A stretch of 64,000 bases of DNA, from NCBI GenBank assembly GCA_030407315.1, contig JALQPE010001948.1:1-64000 (forward strand). Direction: 5' to 3'. The notes beneath the pieces are model-generated. The model was not told the DNA's origin, searched no databases, and saw only the letters and a program-made list of their open reading frames with translations. This DNA comes from Asparagopsis taxiformis. Lineage: Eukaryota > Rhodophyta > Florideophyceae > Bonnemaisoniales > Bonnemaisoniaceae. This document shows, piece after piece, positions 30,721-64,000 of this stretch. The translations under genes and the position numbers were made by a program. Positions within the stretch are counted from its first letter, which is position 1; every line of letters begins with the position of its first letter.

Positions 30721-30726
30721 ATCGTA

Positions 30727-31196: not shown

Positions 31197-31199
31197 AAG

Positions 31200-39815: not shown

Positions 39816-41114
39816 CTACTCCCATAGATCTAGTTGACGTCGAAGTGTTTCGAAAGTAAATGTATCTAGCACTCCTCCTCGAAGATAAGGTACATCTAGA
39901 ATAGCAGAACTTACACTAACTGAATCTGTCCAAGCACGACCAGTCTTTGGTAGCACACAAGGTTGGTACTTGCAGGTTAGTGCATGACCTGCACACTTCT
40001 TGTACCAGTGCAATTTGAAGTGGGAGACGTTGCCTTCTCGATCTTTCTTCGTTGAGAGAATCTTGCCAAGCCAGAAAGGCTCCTCAGATGTACAACCGTC
40101 TCCTTTGATAATAACAAATGAATTGGTTGCATATTTTTCATCACTATCACCACGTTCGACACAATCGTCTTCATCGGAACCATTAATACCATTATCACCG
40201 CATCCATCGCCACCACCATCACCACGTTCGACACAATCGTCTTCATCGGAACCATTAATACCATTATCACCGCATCCATCGCCACCACCATCACCACGTT
40301 CGACACAATCGTCTTCATCGGAACCATTAATACCATTATCACCGCATCCATCGCCACCACCATCACCACGTTCGACACAATCGTCTTCATCGGAACCATT
40401 AATACCATTATCACCGCATCCATCGCCACCACCATCACCACGTTCGACACAATCGTCTTCATCGGAACCATTACTACCATTATCACCGCATCCATCGCCA
40501 CCACCATCTCCGAAATCAATGCACTGCTCAGATATATTGTCTTGTTCATCGCCCTGCTGTTCTTCTACGTTGTTACCTGACAATATCCTCTTAGTCTTCC
40601 ATAGAATATCTCTTGAATAAAGGAACGTAGACATTAGAAACACATAACAAACTCGTATTGTGCCATATTTGTAACACTTGAAATCCTTCACGAACAGTGA
40701 TTCCAGAAATAAACGCCGCTCCGCTTTGTTCATTTTCGCAACTCTTTTCAGGTCTTCACAGAGCTTTTTTCCATCAACATGCTTGAAGCAGAAATCCTTA
40801 CAGCAGGTTAAATTTTTTAGCTCCTTGTCATTTACCCTTTTCTCAATTTCAATGGCTTTGGTAACCCTCTTCGCCTTTAGGCCGCTAGCCTGAGCTTCTT
40901 GGATGCGTTTCCCAGAGCGGGAGGAGCCAGAGTTGGCTGAACGTGGCGCTTTCCTCCCTACCGTAGAACGGATATTGACGACCGGGGATGTGCGAGGAGA
41001 CTTTTTCGCTAGAGTCTTCCGTTTCACTGTACCTTCCATGGATCCATCCTTGACGACCGGGGATGTGCGAGGAGACTTTCTCGCTAGAGTCTTCCGTTTC
41101 ACTGTACCTTCCAT
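39816..41114 (-). CDS. Repeat-bearing acidic protein with a C-terminal domain shared with the DUF7869 proteins
   Basis: 432 residues from ATG at 41,114. The N-terminus has two copies of a 25-residue basic unit (MEGTVKRKTLARKSPRTSPVV), Ser-Pro rich like chromatin-binding tails. The middle has a cysteine-containing part (CCKDFCFKH...). Five near-identical 24-residue units built on GDGGGDGCGDN and GSDEDDC follow. The C-terminal 120 residues begin SFVIIKGDGCTSEEPFWLGK and continue KLHWYKKC; they align with the C-termini of the intact DUF7869 protein at 45.4-48.0 kb (AVNGYGCTKEMPFWLGQI, LFIRWYEV) and of the decayed copy at 11.8 kb. The pattern, a small beta-rich domain with F-W-x-G-(K/Q)-I, resembles BAH, chromo or Tudor-type readers, but I cannot name it. 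It may be a reader split from a transposase-like ancestor. Confidence 0.65.
   Translation of the reverse strand: MEGTVKRKTLARKSPRTSPVVKDGSMEGTVKRKTLAKKSPRTSPVVNIRSTVGRKAPRSANSGSSRSGKRIQEAQASGLKAKRVTKAIEIEKRVNDKELKNLTCCKDFCFKHVDGKKLCEDLKRVAKMNKAERRLFLESLFVKDFKCYKYGTIRVCYVFLMSTFLYSRDILWKTKRILSGNNVEEQQGDEQDNISEQCIDFGDGGGDGCGDNGSNGSDEDDCVERGDGGGDGCGDNGINGSDEDDCVERGDGGGDGCGDNGINGSDEDDCVERGDGGGDGCGDNGINGSDEDDCVERGDGGGDGCGDNGINGSDEDDCVERGDSDEKYATNSFVIIKGDGCTSEEPFWLGKILSTKKDREGNVSHFKLHWYKKCAGHALTCKYQPCVLPKTGRAWTDSVSVSSAILDVPYLRGGVLDTFTFETLRRQLDLWE
40148..40507. repeat. Five 72-bp coding tandem repeats
   Basis: The unit (TTCGACACAATCGTCTTCAT then CGGAACC and so on) is repeated five times with almost no differences, even at third codon positions. 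This implies very recent expansion or homogenisation. Each unit adds 24 residues to the acidic protein. Confidence 0.9.
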
Positions 41115-41116
41115 GG
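40977..41116. repeat. 75-bp coding direct repeat, two copies
   Basis: Two nearly identical copies encode the basic unit MEGTVKRKTLARKSPRTSPV, and each copy carries an in-frame ATG. Translation could therefore start at either one. Confidence 0.85.
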
Positions 41117-41181
41117 TGTTTCTGACAACCCATCACATTTCGCCAACGTAGAGTAGCAGCTACAACGCAATTAAATAAAAA

Positions 41182-41196
41182 CAGAACGATGTTCTG
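41182..41196. promoter_or_regulatory. CAGAAC-N3-GTTCTG palindrome, copy 1
   Basis: CAGAACGATGTTCTG, an exact match to the 15-bp motif, in the non-coding region upstream of the acidic-protein gene. Confidence 0.8.
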
Positions 41197-41399
41197 AAAT
41201 TTGTATCATAACGTCGCTCTGGCTGGAAGCTTCCAGCAACACAATTGATATTTGATACGAACTTAAAATTTTTAATGTTCTGTAAACTTTCCAAAAACCT
41301 TTACACTTGTACAGAAAGGTGCACAACTTCTTCCCGAGCCCAAAAACACTACGAGACTATCCAAATTCCCTTTGTAGATTGCAAGAAATTTAAGTAACA

Positions 41400-41439
41400 C
41401 TGAACTGTGTTCTGGTTCTCGCATCAGAACCTTGTTCTG
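41400..41439. promoter_or_regulatory. Paired copies: variant plus exact motif (copy 2)
   Basis: CTGAACTGTGTTCTG (41,400-41,414, one arm base changed) is followed ten bases later by the exact CAGAACCTTGTTCTG (41,425-41,439). Further variants lie at 41,543 (AAGAACTGTGTTCTG) and 41,568 (CAGAATGACTTTCTG). Confidence 0.75.
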
Positions 41440-42341
41440 TCTCGAAGCGTCCCGCCCAAAAATGACCAGAACGGTTTAGACCCAGTAACCGTTGCGAAGC
41501 TATTAAAATCCCATATGTACTCTCCATAAAGTTTAGGTGAAAAAGAACTGTGTTCTGGTTATATCATCAGAATGACTTTCTGTTCAGAAGCTTCCAGCCC
41601 AAAAGAGACGTTCGGAATTAATTGGAACTATTTTTCTGTCGACTATGCGGACCGGAAAATGTGACACGGGAGGTGAATACATCCTCCAAGTTGGACAAGA
41701 TTGATACCTATCCGCGAATATTGATATTTGATGCATAGGTTTCATGTTCTAAGATTAGCTTGAGCATTCTGACACATCATCTCGGGACGATTATTTCCAT
41801 TTGAATGTAACCTCGCGAGACTATACCCTTCAAAATTGCCACCGGAATATCAAAAAATTTTGGGCCCTAAGCCCACCAATTATGGTCACTCAATGCAGTC
41901 TATGTGAAAAACGTTTCTATTGGTTATGCGAAGGATAGGACAAAATATCTGTTGTCAAATATTGATATTTTCTAGACAGATAAACGACACCATTGGCCCG
42001 GCTTTCTATTCCATATATCACTTCCATATAGTTTCTCATCTCTCTGATGACCATGTGATTGCCAGGTGTGCCGAAAGTACTACTCCCGAAATGCAGATTG
42101 ATTGGGAGGAATGAAATCTGACTGGAATGCAACTTTACAAATTTTGAACTCGTAAAAGGTTCACTGACTTACTTATCATGGAACTCAACACTTGCGAGAA
42201 AACTCTTCATGTAGCAAAAGGAGGCTCCAATCATTCAATTATCCTGTCGTTTTCGTTCCTCGTTTCTGGACAAAGGTTCAGCCTGGTCAAGTTCACAGCG
42301 CGAAACCACAGTTTTACTCAGAGCTCGATTGTGACCAGAAG

Positions 42342-45212
42342 ATGAGTAAGCGATTCTTTCAAGCAAAACACAAAATAAGCTCGACAGAACCTAGTTCTGG
42401 TCGGGAGGATGCATCCGTTAAAGCATTGTTCGCTGATATCATGGAAGGCTCGACAAACAGCCGTGTAGATCCTCGATCTTGCATTCCGTTGACATCAATT
42501 CGTCAAATATCCCGCTCTGGTGTCTTGAGATTGAAGTCTATATTCAGTGGAGGTTCCACAGTTTCTTCGGGAAAGAGAGATGGAATGCCCATAGAGAATA
42601 TTGGAGATGGATTTGTTGCTGGATCTGATAATGCTATTGTTGTAGAGCTAACGGGAGGTTTGAAAAGACATGTGTTGGACTTCTTCCGATCTAAACTCGG
42701 CTCGGACGGGGAACCTATCTCTGAATCCCAAGCCGCAGAAAAAGCAGAAGATCGTTCTGTCTGGTACGGAGTAGTAGACGGAATGCACAGAATGACTGCT
42801 ATTCGTGAGTTAATAGACGAAGATCCAGAACACTGGGAGTCTTTCTTGTGGCCTGTGACTATTCTGAAAGGCGGACACAGCTTGCAAACTTTGAAGCAAT
42901 TAGGAAGGCATCAGAATAAGAAACATGATGCATCCTTTTACATCGAATCAACTTTCTATGATACTTTGGTCGGTTTAAGAGATGAAGCTGACCGATTGAA
43001 GACCATGTCGAATGGTAGAGCTCCATCTGCGAAACAGATCGCTTCAGCGTATGATGGTTGTACGCATCTGAAGGATAATACTATAAGACAAGCAGCAACA
43101 ACAGCAGTTAGACTTCCACTAAGTGTAATACATGAGATCGGAGTAATCATGAACGAAGAGCACCCGGATTTGGCAGAACCAAGTTCTGCTGAATATAAAC
43201 CGCTGGAAAAATCCATGAATATGCGATGCACCGATTGTCGAGTATACAGGAAATTCATCAACATAACTTCAATCAAGTCCGCGACAAAGTTCATGAGAGC
43301 CTCAGGTCCGGACGGAGAAAAGAATCAAATCAACACGCTCCACCGGCTGAGGGAAATTTCTAGAACGAACAAGTTCAAAGCAGCATCGTATAAGGTAACA
43401 GTGGAGCAGTTTGAGAGTGCTTGTAGTGCAATGAGGGAGGCTCGAAAGTTTGAAGCTCTTTTAGAAGATGATGAATGGCCGTCTGGAATGGAAGTAGTCA
43501 AGCACAACTTACTCCGTACCACAAAATTTGATTGTGAAGTTACTGCCAATTTCGGGAATGATGGAGATGTTTTAGATTCTCTTCTTAAACAATATCGGAA
43601 AGTTTGTCCTGAGGCTGCACCGCTTAAAGAAAAAAAGTTTTCCGAGAATTTCACCAGGGAGAAAGAACTTCAGGCTAAAGACAATTGTACTGCCTTAGCT
43701 TCCGCGGATGATTCTCTTCCAATCGCAGCTGAAGATATCACTAAAGGGGGTGAAGTTCCTGAAGATCAAGTTCCACATCCAGTGCCGAGCATCACTATAG
43801 AAGGAAAGGCACCAAGAACATTACCACAGGATCTAGGCGATATGCCTGAATCAGAAGTCTTGACCAAACCTAATTCGGAACCAAATTCCGTTCAACCGAA
43901 GCAGGTTAACAGGAATAATTCCGCTCCATCAAACGCTCCGAGTGCCAATTCTGTCCGACTGAATACGCGTCCAAAACGAGTTGCTTGTACTACAGAAGTG
44001 CTGGATGAGAAAATTAACTATCTTGACGAATTGGGTGTTTCATGCCACCAGATGAAATGGCAAGATTTTGATAAGACCGTTTGGACAGATGGTGATGCTC
44101 TCTTCGATCTTATACTGACAGATCCACCGTATGGGACGCCTAAATCTCGTTCTTTGCGAAACACTTCTTACGATAACTTCATAGATGACAAGGAAGTGAA
44201 AGAGATATGTCAGTTTGCCAGGCGCGTCTTGAAGCCGGGAGGGTGGTTTCTTGCATTTGTTTCATTTCGAAACTTCGAACTTTTCTACAACGAACTTCAC
44301 CGCATCGGATTTGCCGGACCAGAATACCCATTCGTAATTATGAAGGATACCAGTACGATGCAAGCTCACAGAGGTGATCAGTTTCCTCAGAACGCTTGTG
44401 AATTTTCTGTCATTGCAAGGGCACCAGGAATTTCGAAAAGTGCATTCAAGCCAGATTTGAGGAGCCCTTACAACTTCGTTCCTTCAAAGACAAGCAGACG
44501 GTTTGCTGCTATGTCAGGTATACCCGTTTCAAAAGAAAAGCTCCTTTTGCCAGGCACGAAATCTCCCGTCCTAACAGAGGAGAAAAATGTGGGTCTGCTT
44601 GCTGAACTAATCAATACATTTTGTCCAGAACGGGGTTCTGTTTTGGATATTTACGGAGGTACTTTCACTACTGGAATAGCTTCGTTGCGAACTGCACGTT
44701 CATGTGTAGTAATCGAGTCAAGCGCATCTACATTTCGTCTTGCCCATGAGAGGCTACGTGCAGTGGCAGAGATACTGTACCGAAAAAGTCCATCCTCACA
44801 CCACGCAATGAAGAAGAGAAAGACGCGAGAGAATTCAAAAGCTGAAAGCAGTGGAGAAATCACGAAGATGATCGAAAAGAGCAGTACTATTGTTCAAAGT
44901 GGAAACGATATGCTGAAAGGAGGGGACGGAGTTGAATTACTCCTTGATGGAATCACTATTGGTCATGCAAAGCTTCTGTCAGCTCCAGATAATGACAGTG
45001 ATTTACATACTTCTATTCATAATGTTCCTCTCTCTGAGTACGAGAAAGATGGCCAGAAGCTAGTTGCATGCTATTCCTTCAAAGTTAAGGAGGATGCTGG
45101 CGATAAAAAATACCCATATGGTTATGGAGGCATCGAGAAGCCTCCGGGAAACCTGAAGGGCTTAGCGGGAATATTCTCTTGGGACCTACACAGCATGAGA
45201 TGTTCCAATTGA
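42342..45212 (+). CDS. ParB-like / DNA methyltransferase fusion protein
   Basis: 956 residues. ATG at 42,342 is the first in a frame open from 42,192. Residues about 25-330 form the ParB-like region: VDPRSCIPLTSIRQISRSGV, then WYGVVDGMHRMTAIRELI (G-x-H-R box at 147-150), and further conserved blocks shared with the solo protein at 28,018. A hydrophilic linker (about 430-550) follows. Residues about 580-810 are a DNA methyltransferase: DLILTDPPYGTP (catalytic DPPY at 594-597), RRVLKPGGWFLAFV, and then LDIYGGTFTTGIA (AdoMet-binding motif I, 768-779). Catalytic motif before motif I is the beta-class N4-cytosine/N6-adenine order. DPPY permits either base but excludes a C5 enzyme. About 150 C-terminal residues are unassigned. 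Likely role: sequence-guided DNA methylation, perhaps of the element's own palindromes. The downstream gene on the same strand starts 211 bp after the stop. Confidence 0.88.
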   Translation: MSKRFFQAKHKISSTEPSSGREDASVKALFADIMEGSTNSRVDPRSCIPLTSIRQISRSGVLRLKSIFSGGSTVSSGKRDGMPIENIGDGFVAGSDNAIVVELTGGLKRHVLDFFRSKLGSDGEPISESQAAEKAEDRSVWYGVVDGMHRMTAIRELIDEDPEHWESFLWPVTILKGGHSLQTLKQLGRHQNKKHDASFYIESTFYDTLVGLRDEADRLKTMSNGRAPSAKQIASAYDGCTHLKDNTIRQAATTAVRLPLSVIHEIGVIMNEEHPDLAEPSSAEYKPLEKSMNMRCTDCRVYRKFINITSIKSATKFMRASGPDGEKNQINTLHRLREISRTNKFKAASYKVTVEQFESACSAMREARKFEALLEDDEWPSGMEVVKHNLLRTTKFDCEVTANFGNDGDVLDSLLKQYRKVCPEAAPLKEKKFSENFTREKELQAKDNCTALASADDSLPIAAEDITKGGEVPEDQVPHPVPSITIEGKAPRTLPQDLGDMPESEVLTKPNSEPNSVQPKQVNRNNSAPSNAPSANSVRLNTRPKRVACTTEVLDEKINYLDELGVSCHQMKWQDFDKTVWTDGDALFDLILTDPPYGTPKSRSLRNTSYDNFIDDKEVKEICQFARRVLKPGGWFLAFVSFRNFELFYNELHRIGFAGPEYPFVIMKDTSTMQAHRGDQFPQNACEFSVIARAPGISKSAFKPDLRSPYNFVPSKTSRRFAAMSGIPVSKEKLLLPGTKSPVLTEEKNVGLLAELINTFCPERGSVLDIYGGTFTTGIASLRTARSCVVIESSASTFRLAHERLRAVAEILYRKSPSSHHAMKKRKTRENSKAESSGEITKMIEKSSTIVQSGNDMLKGGDGVELLLDGITIGHAKLLSAPDNDSDLHTSIHNVPLSEYEKDGQKLVACYSFKVKEDAGDKKYPYGYGGIEKPPGNLKGLAGIFSWDLHSMRCSN
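42385..42399. promoter_or_regulatory. CAGAAC-N3-GTTCTG palindrome, copy 3 (in coding sequence)
   Basis: CAGAACCTAGTTCTG, exact, 43 bases inside the ParB/methyltransferase gene; it encodes TEPSSG. Confidence 0.8.
43174..43188. promoter_or_regulatory. CAGAAC-N3-GTTCTG palindrome, copy 4 (in coding sequence)
   Basis: CAGAACCAAGTTCTG, exact, in the ParB-like part; it encodes AEPSSA in the same codon phase as copy 3. Confidence 0.8.
44626..44640. promoter_or_regulatory. CAGAAC-N3-GTTCTG palindrome, copy 5 (in coding sequence)
   Basis: CAGAACGGGGTTCTG, exact, just before methyltransferase motif I; it encodes PERGSV in the same codon phase. Confidence 0.8.
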
Positions 45213-45423
45213 GATAAAGATGTTTGCGAATGAGTACTATTTTTGTACATTGCACTACTGAAGAGCGATTCCAAACATCTAGAGAAGAATGGAATAAATC
45301 TTTTCACATCGATCATTACCGTTGTACAATATTTGGCGCCAAATTTGTTCTCTGTTTTTGTAAGTTTGAATTATATGCTCTATCAGTACTTACAAATTTT
45401 GCCCGCCTTCTGTTCACCTCTCA
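45213..45423. promoter_or_regulatory. Short intergenic region between two co-oriented element genes
   Basis: 211 bases between the ParB/methyltransferase stop and the ATG of the DUF7869 gene. No motif copy or hairpin is evident. The two genes could share a transcript or have separate promoters. Confidence 0.35.
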
Positions 45424-48048
45424 ATGAAAGTGAGCGTTCGAAGTGAAAACCACTGCAAACTCATGGAGGACACATTTTGCCTCTCCGACACCAACCGCAA
45501 ACTGATTCACAAAAGTGCTGTCGGTATTCTTGCAACGCTGGGGATCGAAGCCGAAGCTGAACAATGCACCAGCGAGAACTCATTTCCGCATCATCCAAAC
45601 CGATCAAAATCATCTGCAAACCAAGGAATTCCATTGAGCAATGATATAATTCCAATTCGTTTCAACAGAAACCGCCAAGAATATGTCAGAGGTTCATTGA
45701 ATCGTTCGGAATCTGGAATTCTTTTGGAGCGTAATGACGGTTACGGAAATATTCCATTTCAATCACCGCTGGAAGTAAAACAAGCTTCTGTATCTGACTG
45801 CTTATCTCCAAGTACTGCAACAGAAAGATATTCTGATTCTTGTGCGTCATCTTGTCCAATTGGAAAACCATCCATCTATCAGTTGGATACAAGTCCACGA
45901 AAAAGCCATGATAGCGACAAGAGGAGTAATGGAAATCGTGTGAGCAAAAGGATGATCGAGAAGAGGAAGCATGTCACGTCTTTATCTAATCTAGACATCA
46001 GAAAACAGTTCTGTTGTAAGAAAAGGAGATGCTTTCGAAGTACAGACCCAACGTTTCGTAGGTCTGAAGTCAGCCGAGTACTTTTATGGGGAAGGATTGA
46101 TCGGCGAAGATACTTGGAGAAATTATTCGATCCCAGCTCTAAAGTTTACCTTTTTTGCGGGAGGAAAGTCTGCTACAAATTCCTGGAGTCTTCCTTCATG
46201 TTTTCTAGACACATGCAACGATCAGTGAAGATTTCATGGGCAAATGGAAGATCAGTCTGTTTTTCATCAGCTCAAAAAGACCCAGAGAGTCCACAGAGGG
46301 ACTCTGTTATATGTTTCCTGGACAGATTTGCGGATTCTACAGCGGAGCGAATGCCTGACACCAACGAAAGACACCTTCCACTCTTTCAAAAGAAATCTGT
46401 CTATGAAGTTTTCCGAGAACAGTACACTGTTCTGCATGGATATCATAATATACCTTCTTTGGCATACTTCTACACAACTTGGAAGAAGTATTGCGGTGAT
46501 ATCAAAGTAAGAAGAATTCAGCGATTCACAAAATGTACTGATTGTGAGTATATTCGGGACGCTCTAGCCAAGTATGGAACAGACAAGAAGAGTACAGCTC
46601 CTCTTCTTGAACGGAGACGTTTGCATATAGAGATGGTTTCTCGGGAACGTAGAGAGTATCAGAAGAGGTGTGAGCTAGCGGCGTTGTACCCTTCGCAGTA
46701 TACATCACTTATCGTGGATGGTGCAGACCAGTCTGGATATGGGCTTCCCCATTTCACTGTCAATACAAAAGCGACAGTTGGGCATAGTTTGAAGGTCAGG
46801 CTGATAGGTGTACTAGAGCATGGTGCCCGAAAACATCTCTCGTTGTACACCATGACCGCAGAATTTGAAACTGGTGCTAACCATATCGTGGAAGCGCTTC
46901 ACAGAACGCTTTCAAGCAAAGCATTAGGATCTAAACTACAGGGAAAACTTTTTTTGCAAGTTGACAATTGCACACGGGAGAACAAAAATTCATTCTTGTT
47001 CTGCTACTTGGAATGCTTAGTGGCATGGGGTGTGTACGAAGAGATATTTGTGTCTTTCCTTCCTATAGGACACACTCACTCTGATATCGACCAAGCCTTC
47101 AGTTGTACATCAAGGAGACTGAAATTCAATAACGCAGCAACTATGGAGGATCTCCACGATGAACTGCGAAAGTCTTTCACGCCTGAACCATCTGTCTCCC
47201 GCATGCTACACATTATCAATTTCTCGGGTTTATGTAAGATGGAAAACTGTATTGGGAAGGTGAAACCTTTTTCAAAGTACCGCTACTTCAGATTCTTCAG
47301 AGATCCCGAAACAGAACGGGGTTCTGCCTTCTTCAAAACTGCTTGTGATGTCAAAATTTCTTGTGATGACCAGTGGAGAAGCCTTCCAGCATTGACCAAT
47401 GGTCTCAAAGGATTTACTCGATCTCCACCAAACCTTCACGCGGCACCCTGTAACTCTGTTGTCTGTCCACCAGATAAGGAAAAAATTCTTCTAAGGCTCA
47501 GATCAGAGGAGGTAAGGGTGAACAGTGTCGCTAAAATGAGATCACTTCATGCACTGGTTGCTCAAGTGTACAGAGACAGAGACGAACCACTACATTGGAA
47601 CTTGGAAGAGTGCGTAGAGCTGAATGGAATTTACAGTAATCAGAGTTTTTCCAACCATGGGTTTGACGAGGATGAAGAAAATTTACAGGAAATGATGGCT
47701 CAAACAGACCTACCTTATTCTAGGAATCGATTTGTTGCTGTTAATGGATACGGATGTACGAAGGAAATGCCTTTCTGGCTAGGACAGATTATCGAATGTA
47801 TCCAGGATGGAAGTGGCGTGACAAGAAATCTGTTCATAAGATGGTATGAAGTGTATGACAAAGGGGATGCATGGAGTGGTAAGTATCGTCCGGCGACAGT
47901 TGGAAGAGGAAAAAATATAGACCCTTGGCAAGGGAATATTTCTGTGGATACAGTAATAGCTGAGTTTGATTCTTTGACGAACAAGAAACTCAGAGCAGGA
48001 GTAGAGAAGGAAATTAGAGCAGGTTTAGTAGCATTGGGGAAATACTGA
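45424..48048 (+). CDS. DUF7869-type transposase-like protein, intact
   Basis: 874 residues from ATG at 45,424. The N-terminal 180 residues are polar and variable. A basic cysteine-bearing part follows (KQFCCKKRRCFRSTDPTFRRSE), then MPDTNERHLPLFQKKSVYEVF and a Cys-x2-Cys (FTKCTDC). The conserved core runs SLIVDGADQSGYGLPHF, KVRLIGVLEHG, FETGANHIVEALHRTL, KLFLQVDNCTRENKNSFLF, LPIGHTHSDIDQAFSCTSRR and HIINFSGLC, residues about 425-610. The aspartates in VDGADQ, VDNC and HSDID have the spacing of an RNase-H-like fold; this widespread domain of unknown function is commonly viewed as transposon-derived. The C-terminal part (RFVAVNGYGCTKEMPFWLGQI onward) is the same domain that ends the acidic protein at 39.8 kb. 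Its intact state next to the ParB/methyltransferase fusion makes it the best candidate for the mobilising enzyme of this element. Confidence 0.85.
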   Translation: MKVSVRSENHCKLMEDTFCLSDTNRKLIHKSAVGILATLGIEAEAEQCTSENSFPHHPNRSKSSANQGIPLSNDIIPIRFNRNRQEYVRGSLNRSESGILLERNDGYGNIPFQSPLEVKQASVSDCLSPSTATERYSDSCASSCPIGKPSIYQLDTSPRKSHDSDKRSNGNRVSKRMIEKRKHVTSLSNLDIRKQFCCKKRRCFRSTDPTFRRSEVSRVLLWGRIDRRRYLEKLFDPSSKVYLFCGRKVCYKFLESSFMFSRHMQRSVKISWANGRSVCFSSAQKDPESPQRDSVICFLDRFADSTAERMPDTNERHLPLFQKKSVYEVFREQYTVLHGYHNIPSLAYFYTTWKKYCGDIKVRRIQRFTKCTDCEYIRDALAKYGTDKKSTAPLLERRRLHIEMVSRERREYQKRCELAALYPSQYTSLIVDGADQSGYGLPHFTVNTKATVGHSLKVRLIGVLEHGARKHLSLYTMTAEFETGANHIVEALHRTLSSKALGSKLQGKLFLQVDNCTRENKNSFLFCYLECLVAWGVYEEIFVSFLPIGHTHSDIDQAFSCTSRRLKFNNAATMEDLHDELRKSFTPEPSVSRMLHIINFSGLCKMENCIGKVKPFSKYRYFRFFRDPETERGSAFFKTACDVKISCDDQWRSLPALTNGLKGFTRSPPNLHAAPCNSVVCPPDKEKILLRLRSEEVRVNSVAKMRSLHALVAQVYRDRDEPLHWNLEECVELNGIYSNQSFSNHGFDEDEENLQEMMAQTDLPYSRNRFVAVNGYGCTKEMPFWLGQIIECIQDGSGVTRNLFIRWYEVYDKGDAWSGKYRPATVGRGKNIDPWQGNISVDTVIAEFDSLTNKKLRAGVEKEIRAGLVALGKY
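45999..46013. promoter_or_regulatory. Near-match to the 15-bp palindrome
   Basis: CAGAAAACAGTTCTG has one arm mismatch and a different codon phase from the exact copies. A wider palindrome, AGAACAGT-AC-ACTGTTCT, lies at 46,417-46,434 in the same gene. Confidence 0.45.
47312..47326. promoter_or_regulatory. CAGAAC-N3-GTTCTG palindrome, copy 6 (in coding sequence)
   Basis: CAGAACGGGGTTCTG, exact and identical to copy 5, inside the DUF7869 gene; it encodes TERGSA in the same codon phase as copies 3-5. Confidence 0.8.
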
Positions 48049-55756: not shown

Positions 55757-58700
55757 TTATACGGAAAAGTATTCGTGTCCGTACTCGATGAATAACTCTG
55801 AGCCAGCTGAAATGGGCACATTGGCAGTGACGCATACAACTTGATAGGTTGATACAGAGGTCTCATCAAGAACTTCTTGTATGGGGGAAGAGAAACTAAC
55901 ATTAGCAGAACGCGACGGACGCTCAGTTCCCTCCGCTGGGTCCACAAACGTTGGGTCGTTGATTTTCGATGCCGCACAATACTCGAATGGAACAATGAAG
56001 ATTGGACTTGCAGACGTGGATGGCATCAGACATTTCACATTTGCATCCTTAATTTGAACAGCGTACTTCTGGAAACGCTCAATCGAGAAGGAAGTAGGTC
56101 CAGTACCGAAAGTCTTCAACTTCGCCTTGTACAAATCCTTGTAAACCACAGACCCGAAATAGTACCCTACGATATCTCCAGGATCAATATCCACTCTTGC
56201 AAACAGACCGTCACCAGCCGAAGGAATCGTTGACGCTGCGACGTATACATTGTGTGCCATCGCGTCTATTGACAGCAGGGTTTTAATATCCACGGTAGAC
56301 AACAAACCCAGCAGCGATTGTGGCCACTTATCAATGGGTTGGTCTGTCAACTCCTTGTGCTGGTCCGGAATGCACCAGATGCCAGTAAGAAAGCTGATGA
56401 GGTGGGGCGGAAGTTTGGTTGAAATGGGCACTTTTGAGGTTGTCTTCAATGATGAACTCTCTTCCGAAGTTCCCAGACGAGCAGAAGCCAGCTGCTGTAG
56501 GGCAGTCGTGGACTGCTGGGCAAAGTTTCCAATAGAGACCTGGTGGAGAAATGCGACGTTGACTCTAGGAAGAGACAGTTCGTAGCAATCCTTGAACTTC
56601 TCACACCCGACAAACCTCCTGTACTGACCATGGTGCATTGTCAGGCATGCAACAGCAGTGGAGAAAGTTCCAGCAAACATGTCAACAACCAGGTCGCCCT
56701 GGTTTGAGAAACGCCCAATGAGCTCTTGCATGAGAGCGACGGTCTTCTGCTCGGGGCGCAACGTAACCTTCTTCTTGTCCTTGTCCATATATTTCACCGT
56801 CTCCGACGCAGTGATCCGCGGGATGTTGTCGATGACATTTGTCCAAGCCTTGAATCTAGAAGGTATGTATCCGGCATTTCGGTAATTAACCATCCCCCAG
56901 CCTTCTCTCCCCTTGCCGAGCTTGGTGGCATGTACGACCAACTCCACCATATTCAACAAACTTGTCGTGATACGATACGGGGGGGATGTGAAATGTGTCG
57001 GACTCCGAGTACACACAATAGGCTGCGAATCAACGGCAAACATAGGATAGCCGGCAGAGTACTTCACTTTGCGGAGCTCGTAAACCCAATTGTAGAACAG
57101 AGCAGCAGATGTGAATATGAGAACATGACCACCCTTGCGCGTCACCTTGGAAATTTCAGCTACCGTGTCTTCGATTTCTTCCTGACGGAGGACATCGTAA
57201 CCAGAGTTTCCTCTGCCGGACATACGCCTAGTATTGTACGGCGGGTCAGTGAGGACCAACTGAGCACCTTCCCGGATTTGCGGCTTACCAGGATTGTCAA
57301 CGGCGTCGTAGTTTTTCAGAAGGTCTCGGAAACTACAGTTGAATGTATGTAGGAAACATCCTTTCATGTCCTCCAGTTCCGCAGGAATTAACACTTCCTC
57401 TTCGACCCGCATGGAGTTCACATCAGCTTCGTTTGGACCGGTGCTGCTGCTAGCCGGGTTAGCCCCTGAGCTTGCTGCACCGATCGTACTGACCTCTAGA
57501 CGCCTACGCTTATTCGGGTTCGCGGCCACGGCTTCCGACACCTGTCGGGTTACCGAAGATTCCCGCACTGGAGAAGCTGTCGTCTCCATTTCTCTGAACA
57601 GCTCCTCATTTGGGTCGGGCGTTGATTGCGGCTCTTCTGTGAGGCTGAACGCTGTGAGCTGCCTTTCCACCATCGCCAGTGCCGGAATAGTCGTGAACCT
57701 CCCGGAAACCGGGGAACCGGGGGACGGCTGGAAGCTCTGTATGAACGGTATATCTTGCGGAGCCGAGACAGATAGGTCGAACAATTTGTCATTGCGACAT
57801 ATTGCCATTAAGTGTTCCCAGAATGACTTTGCACAGAGGCGCATCTGAGCGTCTTGCAGCAGCGTACGATGGACAGCAGCACTTGAAATGCTTGCCGAGT
57901 GTTGCACTCTTCGAACAGCTCCTCTGCCATGCAACAAGGTCTTCAGCTCTCGAAGCGGTGAAAAGCCCCTATTTTCCGAGTCCAGGACGTGGTACGTAAA
58001 CAGTCTCTGGTCGTAAAGAAGGTAAGGTTGTAGGAGCTCTTCTGCACCGCCTGACCCCAAGGATTTTGCCAACTCATCCCATGCTGCCAGAACCTGATGA
58101 ACCCCATATCCCAGACGCTGTGCCGTAAAAGGACTGTCCTTTTTGATTAGCGCTGTCAATCTAGCCGCAGACCTGGTTCTTGTCCGTTGTCGTGGGCGCG
58201 TTTCTACTCGCAACTTCCAGTCTCGATCCATCTGAATCAATCCCATGAGAAATACAACTTTCCGGAAAGACGGGGAATATCTTGGAGTTGCCCAGTTACC
58301 ATGATCTGTAGCCCTTTCCTGAACGTGTGAAACAAAGAATTGACAAGCCAGAGTTTGCCTGGAGTACGCATCTCGTCCAATAGCTGTCCTTTCCTGTGTG
58401 TTATGGTTTTGGTATTCATAGAACACTGGACCTGAGGGACGAGGACTCTGGGAGGTTTTCGTTGAAATTTCCACACCCCTTGGCTCATCACGCTCATTGA
58501 TGTACACCGGAATAAAGAACGATACCGACAAATCCTGCATCCCACAGCTGGTAAGAAACAGATCCCATACTCTAGTATCAAGCTCTGTATTGCCATCATC
58601 ACCAGTACTCGTGAAGTTCCGCACTGATTGCACAATGTTAAACGTGTGGCGGTGGTACGCATATGAAAACCACCTGTCAACGATTACGATGGCTTCTAGA

Positions 58701-59242
58701 GATGGTAGATTGAATCTGTACAGACTGCCCACAGCCCTTCGGAACGCTGAGAGTGAACGTTCTTCGAGTGGAACGTTATCTTCGTCCTTCTCTCTATTAT
58801 GCCAGCAGTCCCGCATGTAAGCTACAATTGACACACTTTCGTAGAACGGAATTGTCCTTTCGCTCTCCAGAATGTGATACAGAATCAAGGCAAGCGTATG
58901 CGGTTTCGTGGAAATAGACTCATAGCACATGCGGAGTAAATACCTTGAAGTCTTGGTTCGGGGGCGTGACAATACCTCTTCGCACACGTCCATACCTCCA
59001 ACCAGGGTAACGTCCCCGTTTTCCGCTATGGTACCGTACAGATAGAGAGCATCGAAGTTTAGGTGCGTTCCGCGGGGAATATCAGAGGCAGGAGTGGCAG
59101 CCCCTTCAATCGCTGGAATTGAAACAACGCGCGCCGGATCCACCCAGAGAATTGTTCCGTCTCCGTACAAATCATGCGGTTCTGTTGGTCCATTTTCGCT
59201 GCGTGTTACGACGAGCCCATGTCGCCGTCGTACTTCCGCCAT
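55757..59242 (-). CDS. DNA methyltransferase / SET-domain fusion protein
   Basis: 1,161 residues from the ATG at 59,242, the first in a frame open from 59,353. Residues about 25-100 (ILWVDPARVVSIP... LVGGMDVCEEVL) sit where the sister proteins have their ParB-like region and may be a diverged version lacking the G-x-H-R box. About 100-560 is unassigned. About 620-900 is a methyltransferase: QLVLTDPPYNTRRM (DPPY at 666-669), ISKVTRKGGHVLIFTSA, LRPEQKTVALMQELIGRF (motif X, from 828), and VVDMFAGTFSTAVACL (AdoMet motif I, from 852). DPPY before motif I is the beta-class N4/N6 order. About 1,000-1,161 is a SET domain: VYVAASTIPSAGDGLFA, DIVGYYFGSVV, SANVSFSS (where typical enzymes have NHSC-like residues) and SAGSELFIEYGHEYF. 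So one chain could methylate DNA and a lysine on protein. The SET region lacks obvious pre- and post-SET cysteines. Tail-to-tail palindromes and an inverted copy of its 3' end lie next to it. Confidence 0.85.
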   Translation of the reverse strand: MAEVRRRHGLVVTRSENGPTEPHDLYGDGTILWVDPARVVSIPAIEGAATPASDIPRGTHLNFDALYLYGTIAENGDVTLVGGMDVCEEVLSRPRTKTSRYLLRMCYESISTKPHTLALILYHILESERTIPFYESVSIVAYMRDCWHNREKDEDNVPLEERSLSAFRRAVGSLYRFNLPSLEAIVIVDRWFSYAYHRHTFNIVQSVRNFTSTGDDGNTELDTRVWDLFLTSCGMQDLSVSFFIPVYINERDEPRGVEISTKTSQSPRPSGPVFYEYQNHNTQERTAIGRDAYSRQTLACQFFVSHVQERATDHGNWATPRYSPSFRKVVFLMGLIQMDRDWKLRVETRPRQRTRTRSAARLTALIKKDSPFTAQRLGYGVHQVLAAWDELAKSLGSGGAEELLQPYLLYDQRLFTYHVLDSENRGFSPLRELKTLLHGRGAVRRVQHSASISSAAVHRTLLQDAQMRLCAKSFWEHLMAICRNDKLFDLSVSAPQDIPFIQSFQPSPGSPVSGRFTTIPALAMVERQLTAFSLTEEPQSTPDPNEELFREMETTASPVRESSVTRQVSEAVAANPNKRRRLEVSTIGAASSGANPASSSTGPNEADVNSMRVEEEVLIPAELEDMKGCFLHTFNCSFRDLLKNYDAVDNPGKPQIREGAQLVLTDPPYNTRRMSGRGNSGYDVLRQEEIEDTVAEISKVTRKGGHVLIFTSAALFYNWVYELRKVKYSAGYPMFAVDSQPIVCTRSPTHFTSPPYRITTSLLNMVELVVHATKLGKGREGWGMVNYRNAGYIPSRFKAWTNVIDNIPRITASETVKYMDKDKKKVTLRPEQKTVALMQELIGRFSNQGDLVVDMFAGTFSTAVACLTMHHGQYRRFVGCEKFKDCYELSLPRVNVAFLHQVSIGNFAQQSTTALQQLASARLGTSEESSSLKTTSKVPISTKLPPHLISFLTGIWCIPDQHKELTDQPIDKWPQSLLGLLSTVDIKTLLSIDAMAHNVYVAASTIPSAGDGLFARVDIDPGDIVGYYFGSVVYKDLYKAKLKTFGTGPTSFSIERFQKYAVQIKDANVKCLMPSTSASPIFIVPFEYCAASKINDPTFVDPAEGTERPSRSANVSFSSPIQEVLDETSVSTYQVVCVTANVPISAGSELFIEYGHEYFSV

Positions 59243-59600
59243 TACTTGTGAGGTGAAGAGAAAAGGGAGAGCAGGGAGAATGGAAAAAGATGAGTGGGGA
59301 AAGTTTTCGACGATCAAAGGGCGGACTGGAAGTCCACGCCCTCCAAAGTCCACGCGGCGCCAATAAATTCGAAATCGGAAATTCTGGAACCGACACGCCG
59401 CCGATATCTCGCGAGGGGACGTGAGGATGGCGACAGAAGCCAGAGTTGTATTGCAGGGATTAGAGTAGGGGTTTGTACTAGTTTGGAAGGGGTGCGTAAG
59501 TCGCTTGCACTCTGTGCCAGTAAACTAACTTCAACGAGCGCGAATGGCAAGGAGATAGTAGAGAAATAATAGTAGCAAGACTCGTTCTCGATTCACAATT
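59243..59600 (-). promoter_or_regulatory. 5' flank of the methyltransferase/SET gene
   Basis: Contains the in-frame extension without ATG (to 59,353) and about 250 further bases up to palindrome 6. No TATA-like element stands out. TCGATCGTCG-like words near 59,300 are not repeated elsewhere. Confidence 0.4.
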
Positions 59601-59718
59601 GAAATTTGGTAATTTTTTTCGCTCTGAAATTACTGCAGTAAAAAGTGATCTAGCAAAGTGCACTTGGCTAGATCACTTTTTGCTGCAGTAATTTCAGAAT
59701 GAAAAATTTCCAAATTTA
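59601..59718. repeat. Intergenic palindrome 6
   Basis: Same family (GAAATTTGGTAATTTTTTTC, GCTCTGAAATTACTGCAGT, AAAAAGTGATCTA). It is the most decayed of the seven: the right arm has TGCTGCAG, CAGAATG and a shortened A-run. Loop with GTGCAC. It lies upstream of the methyltransferase/SET gene. Confidence 0.88.
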
Positions 59719-60256
59719 AAGCACCGCTCTAATCGTTCATGCTTTATTCCAGAACTAACCAACTGAAACGTCTGACTAGTTTATGGAACGATAATCATCA
59801 GATTCTTCTTTTACGAATAAATCTTGCTGGGAATTCCTAGTTTTGGATATCGATCGTTAAACTAGTCTAGACTTTTAACTAACTTCGCGGACGTCCTACG
59901 ATACATTCCAGCGCATGATGATGGCGTCGTACTGCTGTTCAGCATGCTGACAAGTGCACTAGTGTGTAAAATTGCGCAATGTTATACATGTGTGCTGCAG
60001 AGTAAGGGGGCTATCACTTGCTCTGCTTATTGCACTCTGCGCATATTGGAATGCACAGAGCAAAAAAGTTAGCTTTGCTGTCGTTAACATTGCGGGGCAC
60101 CAATGTGCTCTGCTACGTACAAATTCCCGGTCGTGTATTACCAAAGTATACGGCCGAAAAGCTCACCGAGTTTCCCAGTGCCGCACCTTCACAGTCTCTG
60201 AGCAGAATAAGCGGTGGTAAAATACTAGATCATGTATTGTTGGCCGTCATGGTTTG
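59719..60256. other. Gene-free segment between palindromes 6 and 7
   Basis: About 540 bases with 61-85 residue frames of no recognisable content. Like 49,236-49,994 it is a short palindrome-bounded segment without a gene. Confidence 0.45.
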
Positions 60257-60388
60257 TAGAGTTGAAATTTGGTAATATTTACGGTCTGAAATTACTGCAG
60301 TAAAAAGCGATCTAGCAAAGTGCACAATGGTAGATCGCTTTTTACTGCAGCAATTTCAGACCATAAAAATTACCAAATTTCAACTCTA
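60257..60388. repeat. Intergenic palindrome 7
   Basis: Arms of about 58 bases begin TAGAGTTGAAATTTGGTAAT and carry GGTCTGAAATTACTGCAG, AAAAAGCGATCTA. The outer arm words TAGAGTTG/CAACTCTA pair exactly but differ from the other copies. Loop with GTGCAC. It lies 225 bases before the next gene. Confidence 0.9.
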
Positions 60389-60613
60389 GCCTACATTGCT
60401 GGTTTCACTGCTTCTCAGTATGCCGAGGACCGTTACAGCCCTCATATTTCGTAACGGCACTACCATTGCACTTGTCCGTTACATGATTGGTCTGCTTACG
60501 ACAGACATTTCCCTCGAGTCTTTCTATTTATCTTTCTCGTTGGATAATCAATTTGCTCGTGCACCTCAATTCTCCTCTCCCGGACGTGGAACATCCCATC
60601 ATTTTGAGCTGAA

Positions 60614-62296
60614 ATGCGAGATGAATTATCATTGTCAAGGTTTGCAAAGTTTGAGGAACAGTTTGCATCCCTCGAACAGTATATGCGCGACTCCCTTTCG
60701 TCCATTGAAATGGAGCTTGCTTGCATTCGGTACATGACCTCGGCTGCTGCAGGGACAAACACTGTACCTTCAGTAGTTCTCGAGGAGAGATCAAGAAAAT
60801 CAGGTCAAATTACCACTCTAGTGTCCTCTTTGTTCAACAATAGGCATGTGACATCTAGATTCGTCGCTTTCAGAACCGTTGCAGAGCTTACCAAAACTTC
60901 AGTGGATCCAAGTTTGCTCAGGAACTTGAATGCAAGGTCTGAAGAAACCCCGCAAGAGAAGTCCTGCACAACATTGCTACTTGCTGCATTGTCGTTTTCG
61001 CAGACTTCCAGTTCTAATGCAGAGGTAAGACAATCCAAGAAATCTCTAATTGGCACGGCGGTTGGGAAACGGCATATATTCTTAAAACGCTCTATTGTCG
61101 GAACAGCATTTATTTCGATGGCGAATGACAGAATTGTACGATGGAAGGACTCGGCCACCAGGAATGCCGGCATCCTGGACCCCGGCGAAGAAGAGGACTT
61201 GAACAGCAATACTATCTCAAGAGATTATGCACTACGCAATGCAACAATTGTGCCCATCGATAAACCATCTTGGCTGCACATTTCGCAGCGCGCTCTTTTC
61301 CATGCCATGGATATTTCGATGCCCACGGAGGCGGAACGCAACATAGAACAGTCCACGAGTTTGCAGGTTGGATCTTCAAAGCGTCGGCGACTGTCTGGTT
61401 CGAAAGGAGAAGCACGCCGTGCATCTACATCCTCCTCTTCGTCTTCCGCTATGCCCAACCTGTCACCGTCAGATATACAGTCCATTCCGATCATTACCTC
61501 TGCTCTACGGCAGCTCACCCAGTTCTTCAACAGTTCCCGTAAGCAAATGAAAATGGAATTGGTCAAGCAAGCATTCTTCCTCATCCACCGAGATATGAAG
61601 GCAACTATTGCTGTTCCACTTGACTCTGATGTGTCCACGTCGGACATGTGTCCACTTGACTCAATTCCGACAACTTTGAAAGCTTACGGAACAGGAGAAG
61701 ACGCTCTAGAAGTGTATTCAAGAAATGATTCTACCTTCTCAAATTTCATTCTCAGTCGTCCCGAGCTTCACGTTCAGGTTACTTACAAAGTTCAGGTAAG
61801 CGGCGGTATCGTTAATGGAAACATTACAACTGCGCAGAATCCAGTGGAGAAATTGGCTGTATGTTCATTCTCTTTTCTTACTTTAGCTATGATATTGTTA
61901 TGCAGTTTCTGCCAATGCACACAACTGGAGATGCTTTGTCATGAGCCCCATGCCATTCAAGCTTGTTATCGGATAGCAATATGTCTCCAAGGTTTATTCA
62001 ATGCGGCCCTCAGCAAGTTACCTACACCTCAGTTCGGGAAAGATGGATTCCCTTTGCGAGTTTCATGGGGACATCTAGAGCTGCGGGACTACCTCATGGG
62101 AGGTGATTGCCTGTTCGGAATCATCCGAAAGAAGAGAAATCTCACTGCTGAAGAATACGAGTCTGTACGTTTCGATTCAAGCATCGTACAAACCGAACCT
62201 TCCTTTGAAAACTCGGCAGACAGGCGCATTTCCAATCCTGATTGCGTCCCTCTACAGGAGGATGACGAGCTTGGTATTTCTCTAATTGATGTGTAG
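60614..62296 (+). CDS. Unrecognised 560-residue protein with N-terminal coiled coil
   Basis: A continuous frame from ATG at 60,614 to TAG at 62,296. The first 40 residues have a heptad pattern (SRFAKFEEQFASLEQYMRDS, then IEMELACI). A basic, nuclear-signal-like stretch GSSKRRRLSGSKGEARR lies near residue 255, followed by a run of serines. The second half includes LRQLTQFFNSSRKQMKMELV and, near the end, VSWGHLELRDYLMGGDCLFG. A hydrophobic stretch at about 415-430 (CSFSFLTLAMILLCSFC) coincides with plausible intron signals (GTAAGC at 61,796; TTTAG at 61,886), so part of it could be unspliced intron, although the tested splices bring stops. No domain recognised. Orientation and the upstream palindrome match the neighbouring cassettes. 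Confidence 0.55.
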   Translation: MRDELSLSRFAKFEEQFASLEQYMRDSLSSIEMELACIRYMTSAAAGTNTVPSVVLEERSRKSGQITTLVSSLFNNRHVTSRFVAFRTVAELTKTSVDPSLLRNLNARSEETPQEKSCTTLLLAALSFSQTSSSNAEVRQSKKSLIGTAVGKRHIFLKRSIVGTAFISMANDRIVRWKDSATRNAGILDPGEEEDLNSNTISRDYALRNATIVPIDKPSWLHISQRALFHAMDISMPTEAERNIEQSTSLQVGSSKRRRLSGSKGEARRASTSSSSSSAMPNLSPSDIQSIPIITSALRQLTQFFNSSRKQMKMELVKQAFFLIHRDMKATIAVPLDSDVSTSDMCPLDSIPTTLKAYGTGEDALEVYSRNDSTFSNFILSRPELHVQVTYKVQVSGGIVNGNITTAQNPVEKLAVCSFSFLTLAMILLCSFCQCTQLEMLCHEPHAIQACYRIAICLQGLFNAALSKLPTPQFGKDGFPLRVSWGHLELRDYLMGGDCLFGIIRKKRNLTAEEYESVRFDSSIVQTEPSFENSADRRISNPDCVPLQEDDELGISLIDV

Positions 62297-62428
62297 TTTG
62301 ATTAGAAACTTTATATCGGTATGGTTCATTAGTAGTTCTAGGAAAAGTTCCCAACGCTCAACTAGTTATGCTTTGCAATGCATGCATCATCTGTATTAAA
62401 GTATTTCTCATTCATCCAACTGCTGGCA
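62297..62428. other. Convergent 3' interval
   Basis: 132 bases between convergent stops. No hairpin of the palindrome family here, in contrast to the other intergenic regions from 49 to 60 kb. Confidence 0.4.
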
Positions 62429-64000
62429 TCATTTAATGTACTTCTCTGCCTTTTTCTCTGACGCACTATACCCTACTACGTCGTTCACTACATCTTCTGT
62501 TATCAACTTGTCTATACGACAAGGTTCTTCCACACCACGGAATACGACGTACGGCATATGCACTCTCAGAGATCCCCACAATACATCCCCTGCCTTTCCT
62601 CTCTTTCTTTGCATCGCAGGCTCCCATTCTATACGGAAACATTTGTTTCCTTCGCTTTTCCACCCTTCCAGACTCCCTTCACCGTCGCTCCTCCCGTGCA
62701 AATCACATGTCAAAGGACATTTCTGCAGCTCCATTCCGTGCACGTATTCACCTTGGACCACAGAACTACTTTTTCGAATTAGACACCACACGTTTGATGT
62801 TGTTTCCACAGTGCAGAATGAGCTACTGCCAATTGCAACAGATGTCGACTGTGCTTCCATGATTCCCGAGCACAATATCGTACCAAACAACCGCAAACCA
62901 CATGACCTCGCCGAACCGTTCATGTAACTACACTCTTCATTGTCCTCCTCTTCCGAGTTGCTGATATTACGCCTGTGAACCAGACACTCGGTTCGCCATC
63001 GGTGCCCCAATCCTAGCAGATCTGATAGTGTTGCAAAACTGGAACACGTAATGTTCAAAGCTTCCCCACCAGTTCCAGCCACTGCCGCGTGAAGCCCTGG
63101 GTAAACTTTGTAATACCCCCCTCCATAGATTTCTGCTGTTCCCTTTAGCATTTCCCGGAATAACTCAGTGCTCAATGAGATGGGAATCTGCACCGGTCCG
63201 CTAATAGCCGTTCCACTTGTACAGGCACCGTCAATCTCACTATGTGGGTAGCCGCCACCTGAGTTTGACAAAGTGCTTCGATTAACCTGTTCCACAACTT
63301 TCTCTACCGCACGCTGTAAGAGCATCAATAAAACCTTACCAGCTGATACTGTTGATCCACAATTTCGAACCATTCCGTTCCAACCAAGCCGACACTCGCT
63401 ACCATTTCCAGAAAGCATTATATTTTCTAGTGTTCTCAGCCTTGTCTCCATACCACCGTATGTGTTGGCGTCAAGTGCTGATTCCACTTTTTGCTTCTTC
63501 CTCTGCGGTGATATCCCTTCAGATTCTCCATCTGATTGTTCATGAAATTCTACTCCCACCGCTTCGTAGTCCACAACCTCTCTGTTGCTCCTTCGCCACT
63601 GTGTCGGTGGCTGACCCCCGGACATTAACTTACTTCCCATCAGAAATTTTACATGTTCGTAGGAAACACAAGGGTAATTCCTTTCAGGGATAGCATCATA
63701 TAACAATCTGCCTTCCGCAACCACCATTTCATCGTGCCTTGGCTTCACAGCATCCGAGTACCGCCACTTCGATACTTCCATCACTGCAATATCCTTTTCC
63801 TCTGTCGTCAACCTCACAATTGCATCACTCACATCCTGTCTATTGTGCTCCACCACACCAGGCGTGTACACGCCATCTCCTCTGTCTACATCGATGCGGT
63901 CTCCCACTGACGGCTTACCACTGCAAACAGGATACTGCTCAGGAAGTTTGATTTCCACAACAGTAGCCTTCCACCATATTGCGTCATCACCCACTTGGAA
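62429..64000 (-). CDS. Unrecognised protein with Tudor/Agenet-like N-terminal segment, partial at window edge
   Basis: The frame is open from the window edge to TAA at 62,429. Its first visible codons lack an ATG (a GTG at 63,994), so the start lies outside. The visible 521 residues begin GDDAIWWKATVVEI and continue VGDRIDVDRGDGVYTPGVVEHN. This repeats the aromatic pattern of Tudor/Agenet-type readers (entry W/Y-x-A-x-V, then G-D-x-I-D-V), similar to DGWYDARIVV in the transposase at 8.4 kb. A nuclear-signal-like PQRKKQKVE follows near residue 175, then a possible helix ETRLRTLENIML and a Gly/Ser-rich region. The last 150 residues contain several cysteines (GEYVHGMELQKCPLTCDLHG). No enzyme motif seen. 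Convergent with the 60.6 kb gene; probably another component of the element cluster. Confidence 0.55.
   Translation of the reverse strand, partial: FQVGDDAIWWKATVVEIKLPEQYPVCSGKPSVGDRIDVDRGDGVYTPGVVEHNRQDVSDAIVRLTTEEKDIAVMEVSKWRYSDAVKPRHDEMVVAEGRLLYDAIPERNYPCVSYEHVKFLMGSKLMSGGQPPTQWRRSNREVVDYEAVGVEFHEQSDGESEGISPQRKKQKVESALDANTYGGMETRLRTLENIMLSGNGSECRLGWNGMVRNCGSTVSAGKVLLMLLQRAVEKVVEQVNRSTLSNSGGGYPHSEIDGACTSGTAISGPVQIPISLSTELFREMLKGTAEIYGGGYYKVYPGLHAAVAGTGGEALNITCSSFATLSDLLGLGHRWRTECLVHRRNISNSEEEDNEECSYMNGSARSCGLRLFGTILCSGIMEAQSTSVAIGSSSFCTVETTSNVWCLIRKSSSVVQGEYVHGMELQKCPLTCDLHGRSDGEGSLEGWKSEGNKCFRIEWEPAMQRKRGKAGDVLWGSLRVHMPYVVFRGVEEPCRIDKLITEDVVNDVVGYSASEKKAEKYIK

What the first reader, a model, noticed from the sequence alone, without database searches (positions are those of the whole stretch)
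39816..64000. Element-borne kit for DNA and chromatin modification
Within about 20 kb, and beside an intact transposase-like gene, lie two DNA methyltransferases of the N4/N6 beta order, a full-triad 2-oxoglutarate dioxygenase, a SET domain, ParB-like domains on at least two of these proteins, and candidate reader domains. Seen directly: the motifs (DPPY, AdoMet motif I, H-x-D...H...R, SET ELFIEYG, G-x-H-R). Known: KDZ transposons in fungi travel with TET/JBP dioxygenases, and bacterial-type methyltransferases have been captured by some eukaryotic mobile elements. Inference: the element writes, oxidises and reads its own DNA marks, either to escape host silencing or to distinguish itself for transposition. 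A combined ParB-methyltransferase, ParB-dioxygenase and methyltransferase-SET set is, to my knowledge, not described.
Basis: partly seen in the sequence, partly recalled or inferred. Interest (0 to 1): 0.92.

Follow-up and report, generated by a model that had tools for sequence, protein, structure and literature searches.

The report
Nested transposons carrying epigenetic enzymes
The region holds two jumping DNA elements, one inserted inside the other, that each carry enzymes resembling those that mark DNA (and, in one, histones), probably so that copies can protect or recognise themselves in the host genome.

Summary
The domains are largely real, but they belong to two separately mobile transposons. 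Element B (contig 29042-65112, past the window end; 22,727 bp without its insert) has EnSpm/CMC-like ends and carries a transposase-like gene, a ParB-like/2-oxoglutarate dioxygenase and a DNA methyltransferase-SET fusion. Element A (34885-48224, 13,340 bp; 4-bp target duplication) is inserted in B; it carries a ParB-like DNA methyltransferase, a DUF7869 transposase, a coreless transposase relative and a captured STU2-like gene piece. Two other B copies show the site without A. Both families are multicopy here, with purifying selection on catalytic domains (dN/dS 0.05 methyltransferase, 0.06 SET, 0.18 dioxygenase). KDZ and TET/JBP are not supported. ParB-methyltransferases on algal transposons, and the idea that they mark their own transposon, are in print (PMC12477816); the dioxygenase plus methyltransferase-SET pair I did not see in the listings and passages examined, but one key paper could not be read. 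New here: ten dispersed palindromes, all inside A's core, and gene-bracketing palindromes in B. Self-marking against silencing is the likeliest function, not shown. Host lineage is unresolved.

The parts
29042..64000 (.). Element B: EnSpm/CMC-like giant transposon; its right end lies 1,112 bp past the window (contig 65112). 22,727 bp after removing nested element A and its TSD
   Evidence: left end: 18 of 19 other contigs start at query 1537-1543, of 20 scored candidates; right end: 14 of 15 partial copies stop at L133:1112-1118, the 15th at its contig end; TIR 14/14, TSD TC/TC
29042..29055 (+). Left TIR of B, CACAGGATAAGCAA (partner ends at contig 65112)
31491..33914 (-). Transposase-like gene of B; 33% identical to the 6616-8664 ORF; no Pfam family at E<=1; C..C and H-rich stretches by eye
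33957..34884 (-). Part of a B reading frame interrupted by A (other part 48225-48971); the frame is open across the natural empty site L131
34885..48224 (.). Element A: 13,340-bp transposon inserted in B; TIR AACACTGATTT..., TSD AGTA
   Evidence: ends read in 3 other copies; empty sites L131, L132
35550..38797 (-). Captured 5' part of a STU2/XMAP215-like gene, carried as cargo
   Evidence: TOG match; 99.86-100% identical in 3 of 3 copies looked at; probable host gene on C2212 in a 2079-aa frame, 97%
39540..39730 (+). M50/site-2-protease-like exon fragment (HESGH) inside A; naming recalled, no host copy sought
39816..41114 (-). Coreless transposase relative: shares N- and C-terminal parts with the DUF7869 transposase, DDE core replaced by repeats
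   Evidence: a like gene in the same place in L125 and L126 (likeness by eye)
41182..47326 (.). Ten palindromes CAGAA-N5-TTCTG (41182, 41425, 41568, 42385, 42745, 43174, 44626, 45821, 45999, 47312); 10 of 10 in the whole window
42342..45212 (+). ParB-like domain + beta-class N6/N4 DNA methyltransferase (956 aa from this ATG)
45424..48048 (+). DUF7869 transposase-like protein of A
48225..48971 (-). B reading frame on the right side of the A insertion (the listed ORF 48153-48971 runs into A)
49108..49233 (.). 126-nt palindrome with TTACTGCAGTAA; others at 49998, 54392, 54898, 55490, 59603, 60265 and a 61-nt core at 31136, all inside B between genes
50344..53883 (-). ParB-like domain + 2-oxoglutarate/Fe(II) dioxygenase-like domain (1180 aa from this ATG)
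55757..59242 (-). Beta-class DNA methyltransferase fused to a SET domain (1161 aa from this ATG)
60614..62296 (+). ORF of B, unknown
62429..64000 (-). ORF of B running off the window, unknown (Tudor/agenet-like stretch by eye only)

Best explanation
Shown: two cut-and-paste type DNA transposons are nested. B is a 22.7-kb EnSpm/CMC-like element with a ParB-like dioxygenase and a DNA methyltransferase-SET protein; A is a 13.3-kb DUF7869 transposon with a ParB-like DNA methyltransferase and has inserted into B. Inferred: the ParB-like or other element-coded DNA-binding domains settle on the element's own palindromes (CAGAA-N5-TTCTG in A; TTACTGCAGTAA pairs in B) and place 6mA or 4mC there. In B the SET domain modifies a histone at the same place, and the dioxygenase oxidises a host silencing mark or a methyl group. 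The element thereby keeps its own copies open or marks them for its transposase. The marking step is inferred from anatomy alone.
Against: No activity, mark or expression was seen. The A palindrome is not kept in the one 66% copy (2 sites) and the one 57% copy (0) examined, and its half-site ACAGAA also sits in the A termini, so transposase or the coreless protein may bind it instead of ParB. ParB in the methyltransferase protein rests on a motif and an order of elements; profile comparison with the dioxygenase protein's ParB part is weak (probability 3.5%). L099 (70% dioxygenase copy) showed no TTACTGCAGTAA and no long palindrome. 25 of 38 contigs with a methyltransferase-SET row list no dioxygenase.
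Confidence: 0.5

Rival explanations
1. The enzymes serve transposition itself, not anti-silencing: methylation of ends or palindromes tells donor from new copy or times the transposase, as Dam does for some bacterial transposons (recalled), and the palindromes are transposase or repressor sites.
For: Half-site ACAGAA lies at position 20 of both A ends; a coreless transposase relative that could act as a repressor is encoded in A, with like genes in L125 and L126.
Against: Does not explain SET or dioxygenase in B; palindromes lie through A's core, several in coding sequence.
Confidence: 0.25
2. The proteins act against rivals or the host, modifying host chromatin or other transposons broadly rather than their own element.
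For: Several related families share this genome, so competition is plausible.
Against: The palindromes seen are in the elements themselves; they could not be counted genome-wide.
Confidence: 0.15
3. Passenger genes: captured host or bacterial genes with no role for the element.
For: A does carry a captured STU2-like gene piece and an M50-like exon.
Against: dN/dS 0.05-0.18 on catalytic domains between subfamilies; the 3-gene core of A stands in the same order in one copy each at 66% and 57% identity.
Confidence: 0.05

Closest known systems
Sola1-1_Ec32 of Ectocarpus and the green/red algal ParB-methyltransferase transposon proteins it cites (PMC12477816; passages and part 2 of 5 of the reference list read)
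   Same: Giant DNA transposon with a protein of ParB-like plus N4/N6 methyltransferase domains (1104 aa); the authors propose binding and modifying its own sequence; nested insertions in giant transposons reported there
   Different: Sola-1, not DUF7869 or EnSpm-like; no dioxygenase or SET partner appears in the passages read
Giant EnSpm elements with accessory genes in red algae (Petroll et al. 2025, doi 10.1016/j.cub.2025.04.044; seen only as cited, not held)
   Same: Giant EnSpm-type element with several accessory genes; may be the same kind as B
   Different: Its accessory genes are unknown to me; the paper could not be read
TET/JBP-bearing fungal transposons (Kojima 2025, PMC12730594; abstract, outline and passages read)
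   Same: Oxygenase on diverse DNA transposons, EnSpm among them; anti-silencing role proposed
   Different: TET/JBP profile not matched here; ParB fusion and methyltransferase-SET partner
HarbingerS transposons with a SET gene (reference 9 of PMC12730594, seen as a citation)
   Same: SET domain on a DNA transposon
   Different: Here fused to a DNA methyltransferase
Bdelloid N4CMT (PMC8885841, passages read)
   Different: Host gene with chromodomain; none matched here in Pfam
VANC/VANDAL anti-silencing in Arabidopsis (PMC10398659, passages read)
   Same: Element-specific short motifs that differ between related families
   Different: VANC is not described there as a methyltransferase (passages); its motifs are in non-coding tandem repeats

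Membership tests
EnSpm/CMC (CMCT) transposon, element B | CA..TG termini with TIR | tested here: met
   CACAGGATAAGCAA...TTGCTTATCCTGTG, 14/14
EnSpm/CMC (CMCT) transposon, element B | 2-5 bp TSD | tested here: inconclusive
   TC/TC at this one locus; a 2-bp match is weak, and the ParB-like frame cut at the left end is not resumed in the 3 kb to the right
EnSpm/CMC (CMCT) transposon, element B | Transposase of EnSpm/Plavaka type with C(2)C and H(3-4)H | tested here: inconclusive
   CPCHLC and H-rich stretches by eye; 0 Pfam families at E<=1; EnSpm against Plavaka not resolved
KDZ transposon | KDZ transposase | tested here: not met
   45424-48048 matches only DUF7869, and 31491-33914 nothing, in Pfam at E<=1
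KDZ transposon | 8-bp TSD (given for Zisupton in PMC12730594) | tested here: not met
   4 bp for A, 2 bp for B
TET/JBP dioxygenase | H-x-D...H...R | tested here: met
   4 of 4 proteins; common to many 2OG enzymes (recalled)
TET/JBP dioxygenase | Match to TET/JBP profile | tested here: not met
   none for the window protein at E<=1 or P0016, P0017 at E<=5
Beta-class N6/N4 DNA methyltransferase | PF01555, catalytic motif before AdoMet motif, fold | tested here: met
   profile and order for both enzymes; fold for the A enzyme only
Beta-class N6/N4 DNA methyltransferase | Base methylated (6mA or 4mC) | not testable with these tools
   no methylation data
SET lysine methyltransferase | SET profile | tested here: met
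   3.3e-5 window, 7.4e-5 P0012, 3.3e-6 P0014; not listed for P0015; INDP/ANV in place of the usual NHS motif (usual motif recalled)
ParB | ParB N-terminal profile, dioxygenase protein | tested here: met
   phrog_1033 7.8e-5 in P0016, 0.071 in the window protein, none in P0017
ParB | ParB N-terminal profile or fold, methyltransferase protein | tested here: inconclusive
   motif, DndB 0.099, order of elements; fold search filled by the methyltransferase domain
VANC-like sequence-specific anti-silencing | Element-specific repeated short motifs | tested here: met
   ten palindromes in A, 2 and 0 in one copy each of two related subfamilies
VANC-like sequence-specific anti-silencing | Motifs in non-coding tandem repeats | tested here: not met
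   dispersed, several in coding sequence
VANC-like sequence-specific anti-silencing | Loss of silent marks on its own copies | not testable with these tools
   -

The most novel reading that the evidence does not exclude
Element B encodes a self-contained, sequence-addressed epigenetic system: one protein writes a bacterial-type DNA mark and a histone mark, its linked partner oxidises bases, and both are aimed at palindromes bracketing the element's genes. A carries a system of the same logic with its own palindrome, so each transposon family has a private DNA mark and address.
Probability: 0.25. Interest if true: 0.88.

Novelty: new variant of a known kind. Interest (0 to 1): 0.6.

Why it matters
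It ties bacterial-type DNA methyltransferases, a SET domain and an oxygenase to two defined, multicopy, probably recent eukaryotic transposons with known ends, and supplies concrete candidate address sites. This makes the published proposal that such elements modify themselves directly testable with long-read methylation data, and offers a natural fusion of DNA and histone methyltransferase to study.

Tried and rejected
KDZ as the vehicle, TET/JBP as the dioxygenase, and one single element: rejected (see membership test). My first assumption that the STU2-like gene is ordinary host sequence was wrong: it is cargo of A. I also noted the host as a fungus from PDB hits; this is not established: that search returned only 5 sequences (STU2/Alp14 and CLASP), and the literature on such elements points to algae.

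Phages gave 54 records for it, none covering 80%, the 15 listed all in the methyltransferase domain, and none for P0016. P0002 and P0010 are 99.5% and 99.7% identical to copies in this genome, so they are not independent relatives; P0011 is an identical fragment. The model of the dioxygenase protein (pLDDT 30) was not searched. The second look at the methyltransferase model listed no ParB chain among its 50 rows; that says nothing. Enriched words or palindromes in L125/L126: none comparable. TIR searches on the window alone failed until copies were compared. No tRNA or Rfam family was found in the window. The genome-wide count of the A palindrome and a PF01555 census could not be run.

Full report

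Two elements, not one. Comparing copies fixed the ends. Three other copies of A (C540, C895, C2105) match the window at 99.5-100% up to 34885 and 48224, apart from the number of 72-nt repeats, and differ outside. The ends are inverted repeats (AACACTGATTT...; 21 of 25 bases), and the 4 bases beside them repeat: AGTA in the window, CAAG on C540, ATGA on C895; on C2105 only 3 of 4 match (ATAT/ATAG). DNA on both sides of A belongs to another repeat, B. Of 19 other contigs matching the left part, 18 start at window 29036-29042; the right part ends at contig 65112 or within 6 bases of it in 14 of 15 partial copies, the fifteenth stopping at its contig end, while C990 matches through. B's ends are CACAGGATAAGCAA and its exact inverse, with TC on both sides. 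Two B copies, C1847 and C792, show the site without A, with a single AGTA, and in C1847 a reading frame runs open across it. So A jumped into B. B without A is 22,727 bp. B itself cuts off a ParB-like gene (28018-29061; 62% identical to P0005) at its left end; the rest of that gene was not found in the 3 kb to the right, so B's own 2-bp duplication is not firm.

Gene content. A holds, from the left, a captured 5' part of a STU2/XMAP215-like gene (a 97% identical stretch lies in a 2079-aa frame on C2212, probably the host gene), an M50-protease-like exon (named from memory), a coreless relative of its transposase, the ParB-methyltransferase and the transposase. The last three stand in the same order and orientation in one copy each of a 66% and a 57% subfamily (L125, L126; in L126 the transposase is split over two ORFs). 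B holds a transposase-like gene, a frame broken by A, the ParB-dioxygenase, the methyltransferase-SET protein and two unknown ORFs. The dioxygenase and methyltransferase-SET genes are neighbours on the same strand on 13 of the 38 contigs that list a methyltransferase-SET row: 4 in the window's order (C1824, C1956, C693, C50) and 9 in the other (C2078, C2263, C2066, C1726, C134, C2077, C635, C2235, C644). The other 25 list no dioxygenase row; the searches scored only 35 and 39 candidates, so absence there is not shown.

Activity and selection. Ten of 48 ParB-methyltransferase rows, the window's included, are identical over all 1006 residues, and their 6-kb loci are 99.88-100% identical in DNA, which speaks for recent spread; other rows carry stops. 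dN/dS for methyltransferase-SET against L118 (79% identical) is 0.156 overall, 0.048 in the methyltransferase and 0.061 in SET; L120 and L121 agree. ParB-dioxygenase against L099 gives 0.194 overall, ParB 0.077, dioxygenase 0.177, linkers 0.21-0.39. For A synonymous sites are saturated (pS about 0.8 over the whole gene), with pN 0.12-0.19 in the methyltransferase.

Candidate address sites. AGAAC-NNN-GTTCT occurs 7 times in the 64-kb window, all inside 41183-47325; of spacings 0-14 only 3 occurs more than once. A first-order Markov model of the region expects 0.0085. The looser CAGAA-N5-TTCTG occurs 10 times in the window, all there. Spacers mostly differ and flanks are unrelated, and several sites lie in coding sequence, so they are not copies of one repeat (two sites share one spacer). 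Against a simple reading: the 66% copy has 2 and the 57% copy 0, and half-sites also lie in A's ends, so the binder may be the transposase. B has palindromes of about 126 nt with TTACTGCAGTAA pairs between its genes; they recur in L090, L110, L111 and in the 79% subfamily L118, but not in L099 (five loci examined; L110 is the window's own copy).

How it probably works. Shown: transposon-borne, repeated, selected enzymes. Inferred: ParB-like domains bring a methyltransferase, a SET domain and an oxygenase to the element's own DNA. Either this keeps copies out of silencing (preferred, 0.5) or it regulates transposition (0.25).

Against what is known. PMC12477816 (passages and one part of the reference list read; [quoted passage not shown] The source for the last, Petroll et al. 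2025, is not held, so B may already be described there. PMC12730594 (abstract, outline and passages) covers TET/JBP on fungal transposons and cites SET genes on HarbingerS. In the titles and abstract openings listed by searches I saw no ParB-dioxygenase or methyltransferase-SET fusion on a transposon; these lists are cut, cover open-licence papers only, and the papers were mostly not opened. A further paper opened in passages, PMC12695648 (6mA across eukaryotes), treats the MT-A70 family. Hence new variant of a known kind. The host is not identified; a red alga would fit the literature, but no call shows it.

Noticed in passing
28018-29061 (+): ParB-like gene of the A kind, cut at B's left end (29042); 62% identical to P0005 over its first 310 residues. 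B's terminal bases supply its last codons.
   Followed up: partly
13246-14136 (-): N-terminal piece of a second DUF7869 transposase, 38% identical, with a one-mismatch AGAAC-N3-GTTCT-like site at 14172.
   Followed up: partly
17816-25838: Large inverted repeat with 500-850-nt arms, the four longest 95-100% complementary.
   Followed up: no
54392-55679: By eye, a tail-to-tail remnant of a second methyltransferase-SET 3' end, with a stop in the ELFIEYG stretch, in inverted repeat with the 3' flank of the other copy.
   Followed up: partly
6616-8664 (+): Relative (33%) of B's transposase-like protein.
   Followed up: no
P0017 N-terminus and ParB-methyltransferase C-terminus (about window 44900-45209): By eye, a shared domain (YPY...LG.L...WD pattern) joins the distant dioxygenase relative and the methyltransferase family.
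   Followed up: no
L133:1112-3000: Another high-copy repeat starts at B's right end: 21 of 23 rows start at exactly 1112, one at 1114, one at 1177, so B probably sits in or beside it.
   Followed up: no
L111:486-813: A different nested palindrome (TTACAGCAAAGTCATCG...) upstream of a methyltransferase-SET copy.
   Followed up: no
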